A stretch of DNA of 64,000 nt from Enterobacter cloacae (GTDB lineage Bacteria > Pseudomonadota > Gammaproteobacteria > Enterobacterales > Enterobacteriaceae), in the NCBI RefSeq assembly GCF_013375935.1, contig NZ_CP056117.1:4402001-4466000 (forward strand). The letters run 5' to 3'. Below the pieces are notes generated by a model that saw only the letters and a list, made by a program, of their open reading frames with translations, did not search any database and had not been told where the DNA came from. A program made the position numbers and the translations under genes. Shown here one piece after another: positions 2,581-24,141 of the stretch (the first letter of the stretch is position 1; the number at the start of each line of letters is the position of its first letter).

Positions 2581-3864
2581 TTGACTATTTCCAGGATTTC
2601 CCGTCTGGCGTTGGCACTTGCCTTTGGCGTGACTTTATCCGCGTGCAGCTCAACACCACCGGATCAGCAACCCTCTGAGCAGGTTGCTCCGGGCACCGCT
2701 TCCCGCCCTGTTCTGTCTGCGGATGAAGCGAAGAATTTCACCCGTGCGCACTATTTCTCGTCGATGGATCCAAACGCTGCCCCGTGGACGCCTTCTTCTA
2801 TTAACCTGCCGAAACAGCCAGACTTCGTTGTTGGCCCGGCCGGGGCGCAGGGCGTCACGCACACCTCTATTCAGGCAGCGGTCGATGCGGCAATCACCAA
2901 ACACAGCGCATCTCGTCAGTACATTGCGATCCTGCCGGGTGAATACGAAGGCACCGTGTACGTTCCGGCGGCCCCTGGCAGCATTACCATTTACGGCCTG
3001 GGCGAAAAAGCGGTCGACGTAAAAATTGGCCTGGCAATTGATTCAGAGCTCGACGGCGCGGCCTGGCGCCATCTGGTGAACCCGGCCGGCAAATACATGC
3101 CAGGCAAACCGGCGTGGTATATGTTTGATAAATGCCAGAGCAAGCGTGCCGCCACAGTTGGCGTGATGTGCTCGGCGGTATTCTGGTCTCAGAACAACGG
3201 CCTGCAGTTACAGAATCTGACCATTCAGAACACCCTGGGCGACAGCGTTGACGCAGGTAATCACCAGGCCGTGGCGCTGCGCAGCGATGGCGACAAGGTA
3301 CAAATCAACAACGTCAATATTCTTGGCCGTCAGAACACCTTCTTCGTCACCAACAGCGGCGTGCAGAATACCCTCCAGAATAACCGCCTCACGCGCACCC
3401 TGGTTACCAACAGCTACGTTGAAGGTGATGTGGATATGGTGTCCGGTCGCGGTGCGGTGGTGTTCGAGAACACCGATTTCCGCGTGGTGAACTCGCGCAC
3501 TCAGCAGGAAGGTTACGTGTTCGCGCCGGCCACGCAGTCCAACCTCTTCTATGGCTTCCTGGCCGTTAACAGCCGCTTTACGGCTGCCGGTGACGGCGTT
3601 GCGCAGCTTGGCCGCTCGCTGGACGTGGATTCCGCCACGAACGGTCAGGTGGTGATCCGCGACAGCGTGATTAACGAAGGCTTTAACGTGGCGAAACCGT
3701 GGGCAGACGCGGCGATCTCCAAACGTCCGTTCTCCGGCAACACCGGCACGGTGGATGATAAAGAGAAGGTGCAGCGCAATCTGAACGACGCTAACTTCAA
3801 CCGCATGTGGGAATACAACAACCGCGGTCTGGGTAGCAAGGTGGTTGCCGAGCCGAAGCAGTAA
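2581..3864 (+). CDS. ybhC: Pectinesterase-like outer membrane lipoprotein YbhC
   Basis: A 427-residue protein, the same length as E. coli YbhC. It begins at a TTG codon with AGGAG eight bases upstream; no ATG in frame fits. Residues 1-21 form a lipoprotein signal with lipobox LSAC, so Cys22 would be lipidated, and Ser at +2 predicts sorting to the outer membrane. The rest is a right-handed parallel beta-helix of the pectin methylesterase family, seen as repeated Asn/Val-rich strands such as 'LQLQNLTIQNTLGDS' and 'VNSRTQQEGYVFAPAT'. The E. coli protein has been reported to have acyl-CoA thioesterase rather than pectinesterase activity; the true substrate is not evident from sequence. Confidence 0.93.
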   Translation: MTISRISRLALALAFGVTLSACSSTPPDQQPSEQVAPGTASRPVLSADEAKNFTRAHYFSSMDPNAAPWTPSSINLPKQPDFVVGPAGAQGVTHTSIQAAVDAAITKHSASRQYIAILPGEYEGTVYVPAAPGSITIYGLGEKAVDVKIGLAIDSELDGAAWRHLVNPAGKYMPGKPAWYMFDKCQSKRAATVGVMCSAVFWSQNNGLQLQNLTIQNTLGDSVDAGNHQAVALRSDGDKVQINNVNILGRQNTFFVTNSGVQNTLQNNRLTRTLVTNSYVEGDVDMVSGRGAVVFENTDFRVVNSRTQQEGYVFAPATQSNLFYGFLAVNSRFTAAGDGVAQLGRSLDVDSATNGQVVIRDSVINEGFNVAKPWADAAISKRPFSGNTGTVDDKEKVQRNLNDANFNRMWEYNNRGLGSKVVAEPKQ

Positions 3865-3873
3865 AATAAGCGT

Positions 3874-3901
3874 AAAAGGGGGATTTTTAATCCCCCTTTT
3901 T
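3874..3901 (+). terminator. Rho-independent terminator of ybhC
   Basis: An 11-base perfect stem (AAAAGGGGGAT / ATCCCCCTTTT) with a five-base loop lies just after the ybhC stop and ends in a T run. The A-run on its left side means it could also stop leftward transcription of the tisB-like mRNA. Confidence 0.85.
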
Positions 3902-3917
3902 ACTGCGACTGGATACG

Positions 3918-4007
3918 TCAGGTACCGAACTTAAGAAACGCATCCAATAGTTGCATAATTGCAACCATGAGTTGCAGGAACAGAATTGCCCATTCCACAC
4001 CGCTCAT
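3918..4007 (-). CDS. tisB: TisB-like SOS-induced membrane toxin peptide (29 aa)
   Basis: A 29-codon gene starting at ATG 4007, with AAAGGAG six bases upstream. The peptide is one hydrophobic helix with one face of polar residues; its core 'AILFLQLMVAIMQLLDAFLK' aligns without gaps to E. coli TisB (also 29 aa), with about 16 identical positions by memory, including the Q-L-L-D-A block, Val4 and the Ala-Ile-Leu at 7-9. In E. coli TisB inserts in the inner membrane, lowers the proton motive force and promotes persister formation after DNA damage. The surroundings match that system: LexA box upstream (4206-4225), a long structured leader, and an antisense RNA gene next door (4367-4438). The E. 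coli gene lies elsewhere, near ilvB/emrD. Toxicity here is inferred, not shown. Confidence 0.88.
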   Translation of the reverse strand: MSGVEWAILFLQLMVAIMQLLDAFLKFGT

Positions 4008-4184
4008 ACGCCACTCCTTTGGTATAGAGCACTTCTCCTCTGGCTTACCTTTCCGCTGCCTGTCGCCCGAGGTGTGTTGGTTATGTTTTGATGTGCTCCG
4101 CAGTTTAGGCACTGTCGGCACCACCCGACAGCCAGGACTTAAAAAGGATCCTGAATTGCGGAACTGCAACACATCAAACCAACG
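4008..4184 (-). other. Structured 5' leader of the tisB-like mRNA
   Basis: About 177 bases between the predicted transcription start (near 4184) and the peptide start. On the mRNA strand the first bases (4187 to 4166) read GCGCGTTGGTTTGATGTGTT and can pair, as two 7-bp helices flanking a six-base bulge, with the later segment 4098 to 4076. Between them is a perfect 7-bp hairpin (CTGTCGG/CCGACAG, 4112-4131). In E. coli the full-length tisB mRNA is translationally silent because its 5' end folds over the ribosome standby site, and only a 5'-trimmed form is active. The layout here suggests the same control. Confidence 0.7.
4076..4098 (-). promoter_or_regulatory. Antisense target site in the tisB-like leader
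   Basis: The + strand of these 23 bases equals 4367-4389 at 22 of 23 positions (T at 4084 against C at 4375). Since 4367-4389 is the predicted 5' end of the rightward IstR-1-like RNA, that RNA is complementary to the leftward tisB mRNA over this stretch. The target lies about 70 bases upstream of the peptide's Shine-Dalgarno, consistent with a standby-site block rather than direct masking of the start. Confidence 0.78.
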
Positions 4185-4205
4185 CGCAGAATAATATCAG
4201 ACCAT

Positions 4206-4225
4206 CACTGTACATAAAAACAGTT
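4206..4225. promoter_or_regulatory. LexA box (SOS) and promoter of the tisB-like gene
   Basis: CACTGTACATAAAAACAGTT has the LexA signature CTGT-N8-ACAG (4208-4223) with matching A/T flanks. On the minus strand a -10-like TATTAT lies at 4196-4191, placing the start near 4184 and the LexA box across the -35 region. This is the layout of a LexA-repressed, DNA-damage-induced promoter. Confidence 0.82.
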
Positions 4226-4331: not shown

Positions 4332-4360
4332 TTTACATCATCCTAAGCCAATATTATGAT
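4332..4360 (+). promoter_or_regulatory. Constitutive-type promoter of the IstR-1-like RNA
   Basis: TTTACA (4332-4337), a 17-base spacer and TATGAT (4355-4360), each one mismatch from the sigma-70 consensus. The expected start is near 4367, which makes the antitoxin RNA begin exactly with its antisense segment. No LexA box overlaps this promoter, so expression should be independent of SOS. Confidence 0.7.
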
Positions 4361-4366
4361 GGCCGC

Positions 4367-4438
4367 GTTGGTTACGTTTTGATGTGCTCACCCGGCTACC
4401 ACCGGGCGTAAAAAAACCTCGCATTTGCGAGGTTTTTT
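4367..4438 (+). ncRNA. istR: IstR-1-like antisense RNA (antitoxin of the tisB-like gene)
   Basis: A predicted RNA of about 72 nt (E. coli IstR-1 is about 75 nt). Its parts in order: 23 unstructured bases complementary to the tisB leader (4367-4389), a small hairpin (CCCGG/CCGGG, 4391-4406), an A-rich linker, and a strong terminator (4411-4438). It lies divergent to and upstream of the toxin gene, as in E. coli. A longer, LexA-dependent IstR-2-like transcript starting near the LexA box could use the same terminator, but I see no clear promoter for it. Evidence is architecture and complementarity; no expression data. Confidence 0.8.
4411..4438. terminator. Bidirectional terminator shared by the IstR-like RNA and pgl
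   Basis: CCTCGC-ATTT-GCGAGG flanked by a run of A on the left and a run of T on the right, so it has a U tail in both directions. It ends the rightward antisense RNA and lies 12 bases past the pgl stop codon for leftward transcription. Confidence 0.88.
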
Positions 4439-21957: not shown

Positions 21958-22058
21958 TGGTGGGTCGTGCAGGATGACTCGGCTTCGCCTCGCCCTACGG
22001 GCCGTTGCTGAAGCAACGTTATCCTTCACGCTTAATATCTCGAGGAAGACATTAAAAT
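21958..22058 (-). repeat. rtT-like tRNA spacer repeat, copy 1
   Basis: A 101-base unit, 99/101 identical to 22278-22378. Read on the transcribed (minus) strand it begins right after a tRNA-Lys CCA end, forms a hairpin (CGTTGC-TTCA-GCAACG) and ends with 18 bases identical to the 3' end of tRNA-Lys (ATCCTGCACGACCCACCA). The plan recalls the rtT repeats of the E. coli tyrT operon, which also carry a piece of the tRNA 3' end. Confidence 0.85.
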
Positions 22059-22134
22059 TGGTGGGTCGTGCAGGATTCGAACCTGCGACCAATTGATTAA
22101 AAGTCAACTGCTCTACCAACTGAGCTAACGACCC
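22059..22134 (-). tRNA. tRNA-Lys (TTT)
   Basis: 76 bases with encoded CCA: acceptor GGGTCGT, D arm GCTCAGTTGGTAGAGC, anticodon loop CTTTTAA with anticodon TTT, T loop TTCGAAT. Identical to the other three Lys copies. Last tRNA in the operon; followed by spacer copy 1. Confidence 0.98.
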
Positions 22135-22156
22135 CTTGCGGGATTTTTCTTCGAAG

Positions 22157-22232
22157 TGGTGGGTCGTGCAGGATTCGAACCTGCGACCAATTGATTAAAA
22201 GTCAACTGCTCTACCAACTGAGCTAACGACCC
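22157..22232 (-). tRNA. tRNA-Lys (TTT)
   Basis: Identical 76-base copy with CCA encoded. It is separated from the next Lys gene by 22 bases. Confidence 0.98.
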
Positions 22233-22277
22233 ATTCGGGTGCTGACTTCGAAGATTTACTCGGTTCCACTTTTAAAG

Positions 22278-22378
22278 TGGTGGGTCGTGCAGGATGACTC
22301 GGCTTCGCCTCGCCCTACGGGCCGTTGCTGAAGCAACGTTATCCTTCACGTTTAATATCTCGAGTAAGACATTAAAAT
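22278..22378 (-). repeat. rtT-like tRNA spacer repeat, copy 2
   Basis: 101 bases differing from copy 1 at two positions. It lies between the second and third Lys genes as numbered from the left, starts at a tRNA CCA end and ends with an 18-base tRNA-Lys 3' fragment, then a 45-base linker leads to the next tRNA. Confidence 0.85.
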
Positions 22379-22454
22379 TGGTGGGTCGTGCAGGATTCGA
22401 ACCTGCGACCAATTGATTAAAAGTCAACTGCTCTACCAACTGAGCTAACGACCC
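22379..22454 (-). tRNA. tRNA-Lys (TTT)
   Basis: Identical 76-base copy with CCA encoded. Only three bases separate it from the upstream tRNA-Val. Confidence 0.98.
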
Positions 22455-22457
22455 GAG

Positions 22458-22533
22458 TGGTGGGTGATGACGGGCTCGAACCGCCGACCCCCTCCGTGTA
22501 AAGGAGATGCTCTACCAACTAAGCTAATCACCC
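22458..22533 (-). tRNA. tRNA-Val (TAC)
   Basis: 76 bases with acceptor GGGTGAT, anticodon loop TTTACAC (anticodon TAC) and encoded CCA. Compared with E. coli tRNA-Val(TAC) from memory, the D loop is TTGGTA-like, as in the neighbouring tRNA-Lys, the D stem has a T-G pair (GCTT/GAGC) and the anticodon stem begins with T-G. It still folds as a full cloverleaf. Confidence 0.93.
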
Positions 22534-22560
22534 ACTCTGTACTGCCGGAACTGCGTTAAG

Positions 22561-22636
22561 TGGTGGGTCGTGCAGGATTCGAACCTGCGACCAATTGATT
22601 AAAAGTCAACTGCTCTACCAACTGAGCTAACGACCC
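22561..22636 (-). tRNA. tRNA-Lys (TTT)
   Basis: First gene of the leftward operon Lys-Val-Lys-Lys-Lys; identical to the other Lys copies, CCA encoded. Confidence 0.98.
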
Positions 22637-22797: not shown

Positions 22798-23586
22798 TCA
22801 ACCCATCGAAATCAAACGTTTTTGCGCCTGTTTGGCGCCGTCGGTGCCCGGGAATTTCGCAACCACCTGCTGATAAACCGCTTTGGCTTTTGCAGTGTCG
22901 CCTTTGTCCTGCATGATCACGCCGACTTTAAACATCGCATCAGGCGCTTTCGGTGATTTCGGGTAATTTTTCACCACAGAGGCAAAATAAAACGCCGCAT
23001 CATCCTTTTTCCCCTTGTTGTAATTCAACTGACCCAGCCAGTAATTCGCATTTGGCTGGTAAGTGGAATCGGGGTACTTCTTCACGAAGTTCTGAAACGC
23101 AACGATAGCATCGTCCTGACGCGCCTTGTCCTGAACCAGGGCAATGGCCGCGTTGTAGTCCGTATTCGCGTCACCGCTCTGTACAGGCGCTCCAGACGAC
23201 GCGGAGGGATCTGCCGCAGGTGCAGGCGTCGCCGCACCGCTTTGATCGCCTGCTGCGGGCTGTGCAGCCGCACCGCCGCTGCTCAGGCTATCCATCTGCG
23301 ACAAGATTTGCTTCTGGCGTTCCACAACCTGATTAAGCTGATACTGACTCTCCTGGATCTGGCCACGAAGGGAATCGATATCGTTCTGGTTGTCGGAAAG
23401 TTGCTGCTGGAGTTGAGTTAAAAGCTGGCTGTGAGCGTTAGAGATACGCTCGAGTTGAGTGACCCGGTCTTCTACCGAGCCTGAGCCGACACTACTGATT
23501 GGTGCCTGAGCAAAAGCGGCCCAGGGGGCCGCTATTCCAACCAGTAACGACAGACTCATCAGATGATGTCTGAAGTTACTGCTCAT
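22798..23586 (-). CDS. cpoB: Cell division coordinator CpoB (YbgF)
   Basis: 262 residues. Signal peptide (about 1-26, ending AAFA), a trimerising coiled coil with heptads (about 40-95: 'RVTQLERISNAHSQLLTQLQ'), an Ala/Pro/Ser-rich linker (about 105-135), and C-terminal TPR repeats (about 140-262) with 'NYWLGQLNYNKGKKDDAAFY'. It is periplasmic, binds TolA and coordinates PBP1B peptidoglycan synthesis with outer membrane constriction. Last gene of the tol-pal cluster, 9 bases after pal. Confidence 0.95.
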   Translation of the reverse strand: MSSNFRHHLMSLSLLVGIAAPWAAFAQAPISSVGSGSVEDRVTQLERISNAHSQLLTQLQQQLSDNQNDIDSLRGQIQESQYQLNQVVERQKQILSQMDSLSSGGAAAQPAAGDQSGAATPAPAADPSASSGAPVQSGDANTDYNAAIALVQDKARQDDAIVAFQNFVKKYPDSTYQPNANYWLGQLNYNKGKKDDAAFYFASVVKNYPKSPKAPDAMFKVGVIMQDKGDTAKAKAVYQQVVAKFPGTDGAKQAQKRLISMG

Positions 23587-23595
23587 GCAATTCTC

Positions 23596-24141
<546 letters not shown>

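What the first reader, a model, noticed from the sequence alone, without database searches (positions are those of the whole stretch)
4076..4187. The tisB-like mRNA carries its own decoy of the antisense RNA at its 5' end
The predicted first bases of the mRNA (4187-4166, minus strand) repeat the sequence of the antisense RNA (GTTGGTT and TGATGTG blocks) without the six middle bases. They can therefore pair in cis with the antisense target (4098-4076) as two 7-bp helices. The unprocessed mRNA would mask its own target and standby site, and trimming of the 5' end would open it. This reproduces the E. coli 'inactive +1 / active processed' control with a different sequence and explains how toxin and antitoxin could share one pairing surface.
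Basis: partly seen in the sequence, partly recalled or inferred. Interest (0 to 1): 0.72.

Follow-up and report, generated by a model that had tools for sequence, protein, structure and literature searches.

The report
Toxin mRNA that imitates its antitoxin
In this Enterobacter-type bacterium a second copy of the TisB self-poisoning gene makes a messenger whose first bases copy part of its own antidote RNA, so that the fresh messenger is predicted to lock itself until it is trimmed; it is a variant of a known two-layer safety system.

Summary
The mRNA 5' end (minus 4183-4170, GUUGGUU+UGAUGUG) repeats the two ends of the antisense RNA's pairing region (plus 4367-4389) without its six middle bases, and pairs with the antisense target (minus 4098-4076) as two 7-bp helices around a 6-nt bulge. 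The predicted fold shows these helices (z -5.3); removing the 5' segment opens the target in the model (unpaired 0.33 to 0.66). Across 15 related loci three pairs changed on both sides and stayed paired; in two loci a G-C pair became A-U in cis while the antisense RNA keeps a G-U pair. So the 5' end appears selected to pair in cis, but the independent events are few.

The locus is a paralogous tisB/istR-type type I toxin-antitoxin between ybhC and pgl; 13 of 14 same-genus genomes with the full locus also give an ordinary-type tisB match. The two-layer logic is known from E. coli tisB, dinQ and zor; covering the target itself with a bipartite antisense mimic is the variant. Processing, standby binding and toxicity are untested; the window's Shine-Dalgarno is not clearly sequestered in models.

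The parts
3918..4007 (-). TisB-like toxin ORF, 29 aa MSGVEWAILFLQLMVAIMQLLDAFLKFGT ('tisB2')
   Evidence: Pfam TisB_toxin PF13939 E 2.7e-8, 34.2 bits against cut-off 25
3874..3900 (-). terminator-like hairpin downstream of tisB2
4208..4223 (.). LexA box CTGT-N8-ACAG
   Evidence: direct reading; a box of this form (CCAG end in L041) found at the equivalent place in 15 of 15 loci. Binding not tested.
4191..4196 (-). -10 like TATTAT of the tisB2 mRNA; start about 4184/4183
   Evidence: direct reading; TATAAT at the same distance from the box in L041
4177..4183 (-). mRNA 5' block 1 GUUGGUU (antisense mimic), helix 1 with 4082-4076
4170..4176 (-). mRNA 5' block 2 UGAUGUG (antisense mimic), helix 2 with 4095-4089
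   Evidence: both-sided substitutions
4157..4162 (-). UCCGCA helix 3, with 4102-4097 (in the window's own minimum-energy fold an overlapping helix, 4168-4162 with 4105-4099, takes its place)
4139..4147 (-). U-rich loop CCUUUUUAA in a small hairpin of the full-length form, just 5' of the conserved hairpin; candidate place of 5' processing (inferred from the position of +42 in K-12)
   Evidence: inference
4111..4132 (-). conserved 5' hairpin GCUGUCGGGUGGUGCCGACAGU, counterpart of the K-12 +42 5' structure
4076..4098 (-). antisense target and presumed ribosome standby site
   Evidence: 22 of 23 positions complementary to the sRNA; lies where K-12 has positions 93-116, called single-stranded standby region in PMC7708055 (the placement on L003 is mine)
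4332..4360 (+). sigma-70-like promoter of the antisense RNA, TTTACA-17-TATGAT; start about 4367
   Evidence: 3 such sites in the region, 1.1 expected
4367..4438 (+). antisense RNA (IstR-1-like antitoxin), pairing region 4367-4389, terminator about 4410-4438
   Evidence: direct reading; Rfam istR only 26.7 bits, below its gathering score 45

Best explanation
The locus is a paralogous tisB/istR-type type I toxin-antitoxin pair under LexA control. The first about 20 bases of the toxin mRNA act as a tethered imitation of the antisense RNA: they pair with the antisense target in the same molecule, close the conserved 5' hairpin region into one long imperfect helix, and so keep the fresh mRNA closed both to ribosomes (standby site) and to the antisense RNA. 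Loss of the 5' segment by a nuclease, as for K-12 +1 to +42, opens the target; ribosome standby and antisense RNA then compete for it. Shown by computation here: the antisense mimicry, the predicted cis helices, their conservation with some both-sided changes, the opening on truncation, the paralogy. Inferred from tisB of K-12: LexA control, processing, standby, toxicity, antitoxin action.
For: Exact blocks and geometry. The stretch 4184-4076 folds at -45.0 kcal/mol against a shuffle mean of -27.5, z -5.33, 0 of 200 shuffles as low, and shows both helices. In 15 of 15 loci the target is paired with the first 24 nt at 0.54-0.80 in the full leader, and its unpaired fraction rises on truncation (from 0.19-0.44 to 0.33-0.67), least in L044 (0.31 to 0.35) and L004 (0.44 to 0.52); the same direction in 15 of 15 with the ORF included. 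RNAalifold finds the same helices (the edge base of block 1 is paired one helix further in). On the named 20 pairs 94.6% of 279 cells pair, against 28-46% when slid by 1-3 columns; 8 cells changed on both sides against 3.1 in shuffles, 0 of 500. Own 5' end with own target has a better mean energy than all but 23 of 20,000 partner permutations, 14 loci. Discriminating cases: L042 and L046 have target CAUAUC with 5' end GAUAUG (Watson-Crick in cis) while the antisense RNA keeps GAUGUG (G-U in trans); L047 has a G-C pair in cis at the edge of helix 1 where the antisense RNA has an A-C mismatch.
Against: Only three pairs show both-sided changes, and 78 of 500 shuffles reach that number; 488 of 500 reach the number of pair types. 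Five of seven pairs of helix 1 never vary, so its conservation alone does not prove pairing. One of the three A-U cells in helix 2 (L004) comes from a locus in which helix 2 is not formed. L042 and L046 are apart on flank trees, but leaders seem to have recombined relative to flanks, so it may be one event. In L037, L038, L041, L044, L047 and L004 one or more helix-2 pairs are broken. Against shuffles the duplex is weak or unremarkable in L044 (385 of 2000), L037 (283), L004 (207), L041 (134) and L038 (124). The cruder similarity count did not pick out the 5' end. The window's SD is mostly unpaired in models with the ORF, which weakens the need for standby. Vienna predicts only a small change for K-12 (0.38 to 0.49) and none for the ordinary tisB of the same genome (L002, 0.43 and 0.43), so such numbers are a rough proxy for a switch that is reported for K-12.
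Confidence: 0.78

Rival explanations
1. The 5' segment masks mainly through helix 3 (UCCGCA with UGCGGA, just 5' of the target), as in ordinary tisB leaders; the antisense-like blocks are extra or accidental.
For: Helix 3 is nearly invariant (96.4% of cells) and its place corresponds to the K-12 GCGGGG/CCCCGC helix. In L004 helix 2 is missing but a CCAGGUG/CACCUGG helix sits there.
Against: The both-sided changes lie in helix 2 and at the edge of helix 1, none in helix 3; the start-site scan shows the target opening as blocks 1 and 2 are removed, before helix 3 is reached.
Confidence: 0.12
2. The GUUGGU start is conserved for transcription or for shared descent of the two promoters (the antisense RNA and the mRNA are both predicted to start at GUUGGU), not for pairing.
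For: GUUGGU is present at 22-24 nt from the LexA box in 15 of 15 leaders and at the start of the antisense pairing region in 15 of 15 (which used GTTGGT as its anchor).
Against: It does not explain block 2 or the both-sided changes, nor the permutation result.
Confidence: 0.06
3. The complementarity serves something other than masking, for instance making a duplex that a nuclease cuts, or mRNA-mRNA pairing in trans.
For: A long imperfect helix closes a hairpin with a U-rich loop at the expected processing place.
Against: No experiment; not exclusive with masking.
Confidence: 0.04

Closest known systems
tisB/istR-1 of E. coli K-12
   Same: TisB-family toxin of 29 aa, LexA box, divergent antisense RNA with over 20 nt complementarity far upstream of the RBS, conserved 5' hairpin (AAGUCCUGGCUG..CGGGUGGUGCCG), a 5' segment that is predicted to close the region; in K-12 the +1 form is reported inactive and +42 active (PMC7708055 introduction; PMC5668327 passages).
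   Different: Other locus (ybhC-pgl), other target and antisense sequence, antisense RNA below the Rfam istR cut-off, and covering of the target itself by a bipartite copy of the antisense RNA; in K-12 the longest block shared by the 5' segment and the target's complement is 4 nt.
Ordinary tisB loci of other Enterobacteriaceae (L005, L014, L032)
   Same: A 10-nt exact copy of the antisense pairing region in the 5' segment (3 of 31 distinct segments).
   Different: One block, in the 3' half of the pairing region only.
dinQ/agrB of E. coli K-12
   Same: +1 inert, +44 active (PMC5668327 passage); with an assumed 40-44 nt 5' segment, that segment is predicted to pair with the AgrB target over 13 bp; shares the hairpin sequence with tisB.
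   Different: Truncation does not open the target in my model; AgrB is reported to act by RBS sequestration, not by competing with standby (PMC5668327 passage).
zor/orz
   Same: 5' processing exposes the region that the antitoxin binds (PMC11264685 passage).
   Different: Not compared by sequence here.

Membership tests
TisB toxin family (Pfam PF13939) | matches the family profile above its curated cut-off | tested here: met
   34.2 bits against 25
tisB/istR type I toxin-antitoxin | SOS-type promoter with a LexA box before the toxin mRNA | tested here: met
   sequence only: 4208-4223 CTGT-N8-ACAG; box in 15 of 15 loci. Binding not tested.
tisB/istR type I toxin-antitoxin | divergent small RNA complementary to the leader, far upstream of the RBS | tested here: met
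   sequence only: 22 of 23 positions; -36.0 kcal/mol with its own target against -17.1 with the ordinary tisB target of the same genome. Expression not tested.
tisB/istR type I toxin-antitoxin | antisense RNA is a member of Rfam istR (RF01400) | tested here: not met
   26.7 bits, gathering score 45; K-12 scores 150.1
tisB/istR type I toxin-antitoxin | 5' segment closes the target/standby region in the full-length mRNA | tested here: met
   by folding and covariation only
tisB/istR type I toxin-antitoxin | 5' hairpin of the active mRNA (pseudoknot element) | tested here: inconclusive
   the hairpin sequence GUCCUGGCUG..CGGGUGGUGCCG..CAG is conserved; the pseudoknot itself was not tested
tisB/istR type I toxin-antitoxin | Shine-Dalgarno sequestered, so that standby is needed | tested here: inconclusive
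   SD unpaired 0.94 (full) and 0.89 (truncated) in the window, 0.00-0.01 in L039/L040
tisB/istR type I toxin-antitoxin | 5' processing to an active form; toxicity; antitoxin action | not testable with these tools
   needs RNA and growth experiments
tisB/istR type I toxin-antitoxin | position at ivbL-emrD as in K-12 (orthologous locus) | tested here: not met
   lies between ybhC and pgl (my reading of the ORFs; K-12 context); the genome's other tisB is at G000:C1:1033721

The most novel reading that the evidence does not exclude
The toxin mRNA carries a built-in antitoxin: its 5' end arose from, or is kept like, the start of the antisense RNA, so both transcripts begin with the same GUUGGU seed and compete for one target in cis and in trans; after cleavage the freed 5' fragment may stay on the target or act in trans as a short-lived second antitoxin, giving a timed delay before the toxin is made.
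Probability: 0.15. Interest if true: 0.7.

Novelty: new variant of a known kind. Interest (0 to 1): 0.46.

Why it matters
It shows how one RNA surface can be closed first by the messenger's own 5' end and later by a separate antisense RNA, and it offers natural sequence changes that separate the two pairings. The second tisB locus with its own antisense code beside the ordinary one lets one ask how duplicated type I toxins avoid cross-talk (in this genome cognate -36.0 and -39.5, crossed -13.7 and -17.1 kcal/mol).

Tried and rejected
Considered and set aside: chance repeat (with the weaker count told above); that the K-12 leader is an IstR-1 copy (longest shared block 4 nt); that ordinary tisB leaders mask the same way (3 of 31 distinct segments have a 10-nt copy; leaders such as L002 show no predicted 5' contact with the target and no change on truncation, 0.43 and 0.43). 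A search for the hairpin core CGRGTGGTGYCG in the window's genome gave 7 matches, as many as the reversed control pattern (7), and only the two tisB loci had the longer context. A first dinQ fold with too short a 5' segment (26 nt) found little contact (0.19) and was repeated with 40 and 44 nt; the dinQ start is my estimate from the reported +44. The stretch upstream of shoB gave no copy of the pairing part of its antisense RNA in the identity-block search (its start was not placed). Paper searches showed, in the titles and abstract starts listed (20 of 25, 15 of 16, 10 of 10, 15 of 66, 7 of 7), no description of a second tisB locus or of this mimicry; most subscription papers are not held.

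Rows dropped: 11 of 44 candidate ordinary loci did not fit my pattern for target, LexA box, hairpin and SD and were left out. L040 was left out of the permutation test because its leader equals L039's. L004 was left out in the change counts.

Full report
What is there. The window lies in a genome held as one contig of 4,896,591 bases. Between ybhC and pgl (names from my reading of the ORFs) the minus strand holds a 29-aa ORF, 4007-3918, that matches Pfam TisB. A LexA box lies at 4208-4223. An antisense RNA is predicted on the plus strand from about 4367 (promoter TTTACA-17-TATGAT) to a terminator near 4438. The same genome holds an ordinary tisB locus elsewhere (L002).

The observation. The antisense RNA starts GUUGGUUACGUUUUGAUGUGCUC; the target in the mRNA is GAGCACAUCAAAACAUAACCAAC (minus 4098-4076); the mRNA starts with GUUGGUU-UGAUGUG (minus 4183-4170). 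In the scan no other place of the 64 kb apart from the target's complement and the antisense gene scores as high; the cruder scan did not single out the 5' end and found one unrelated place (plus 3391-3442). Both RNAs are predicted to begin at or within a few bases of GUUGGU.

Folding. The stretch 4184-4076 folds with z -5.33 and shows both helices and a third one. In the leader without ORF, target bases are unpaired at 0.33 in the full form and 0.66 after removal of the 5' segment. With 5' ends from 4191 to 4183 the 5' segment covers the target at 0.66-0.67; the unpaired fraction stays at 0.33-0.36 to 4178 and then rises to 0.62 at 4172. The same direction holds for 15 of 15 loci, weakest in L044 and L004.

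Relatives. A DNA search of 61 genomes of the genus found matches in 60, many of them the ordinary tisB locus or the terminator alone. I read 14 of 61 with the full locus at this place (L033-L042, L044-L047), further partial or decayed ones in G428, G445, G446, G392 and G422, and one full locus in another genus (L004, G338). Thirteen of the 14 also have a match of the ordinary type (query parts that begin at 301-378 and end at 501-537); most of these were not read base by base; G414 has none. A search of 392 family genomes with the TisB protein found matches in 66; beside G000, those that I recognised as this locus are G306 and G338, and not every other hit was read. Named matches to the same locus are 6: Enterobacter chuandaensis, Trabulsiella odontotermitis, Leclercia sp. 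and Silvania confinis with the full leader, Enterobacter sichuanensis and Lelliottia sp. with broken ones.

Covariation. On the alignment of 15 leaders (A2; 14 distinct) the named 20 pairs are formed in 94.6% of 279 cells; slid versions reach 28-46%. Eight cells changed on both sides (shuffles 3.1, 0 of 500 as high); covariation score 0.120 (0.085, 0 of 500). Against this, the number of pairs with a both-sided change (3) is reached by 78 of 500 shuffles and the number of pair types by 488 of 500. The most telling rows are L042 and L046: target CAUAUC and 5' end GAUAUG, while the antisense RNA has GAUGUG. Here the cis pair is Watson-Crick and the trans pair is G-U. L042 and L046 are not sisters on trees of the flanking genes, but L041 and L046 are, with quite different leaders, so leaders may have moved between lineages and the change may have arisen once.

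Comparison with ordinary tisB. Of 31 distinct ordinary 5' segments, 3 hold a 10-nt exact copy of the antisense pairing region; K-12 holds none over 4 nt and is predicted to use a 10-pair stretch UUAUGCGGGG/CCCCGCGUGA that begins before the target and enters it by a few bases. So antisense mimicry exists in part of the family as one block, and as two blocks in this paralogue. In K-12 dinQ, with an assumed 5' segment of 40-44 nt, the predicted fold pairs the AgrB target with the 5' segment over 13 bp, but removal of the segment does not raise the target's unpaired fraction (0.28-0.29 to 0.30). That 5' processing exposes the antitoxin's target is reported for tisB and for zor (passages of PMC5668327, PMC4147584, PMC8309996 and PMC11264685; introduction, first part of the results and discussion of PMC7708055; of PMC11228461 I saw the abstract and outline). 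From memory only: Kristiansen 2016 on dinQ describes alternative structures and a wider family with similar leaders; I could not open it.

Mechanism. I hold it most likely that the fresh mRNA is closed by its own 5' end, that a nuclease cut in or near the U-rich loop 4147-4139 opens it, and that ribosome standby and antisense RNA then compete. The cut, the standby and the toxicity are inferred from K-12. A weak point is that the Shine-Dalgarno of the window is mostly open in the models, while other loci sequester it.

Verdict. Observation confirmed; interpretation partly supported, its structural core well; a new variant of a known kind.

Noticed in passing
L003 1883-1912, L104 (minus, dinQ leader), L105 (minus, shoB leader), window 4146-4116 minus: The tisB and dinQ leaders of K-12 share AAGUCCUGG..ACGGGUGGUGCCGU and the tisB and shoB leaders UGAAACGRGUGGUGYCGUCA (18 of 20): 0 of 500 shuffles as high for tisB-dinQ, tisB-shoB and tisB2-dinQ, 15 of 500 for dinQ-shoB, 218 of 500 for tisB2-shoB. 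PMC7708055 calls such systems non-homologous; a common leader module may be shared.
   Followed up: partly
L104 minus strand, dinQ leader: With an assumed 40-44 nt 5' segment the dinQ leader pairs that segment with the AgrB target over 13 bp in the predicted fold, a second case of an antisense-like 5' end; truncation does not open the target in the model.
   Followed up: partly
L043 (G428) and L064 (Enterobacter sichuanensis): The target's complement and the antisense gene are direct repeats; in these loci the stretch between them, with the SOS promoter, is gone and the TisB ORF has an early stop: a natural decay route of the locus.
   Followed up: partly
L048, L049, L066 (Lelliottia): The leader from the 5' end to the Shine-Dalgarno is missing, leaving the promoter next to the start codon; the antisense gene remains.
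   Followed up: no
L038 (G424) upstream of tisB2: About 125 extra bases between leader and Shine-Dalgarno, possibly a dispersed repeat; not identified.
   Followed up: no
window 21958-22127 and 22278-22447 (-): RtT RNA matches beside a tRNA cluster 22062-22636, and a CpoB/ybgF thermometer match at 23557-23695.
   Followed up: no
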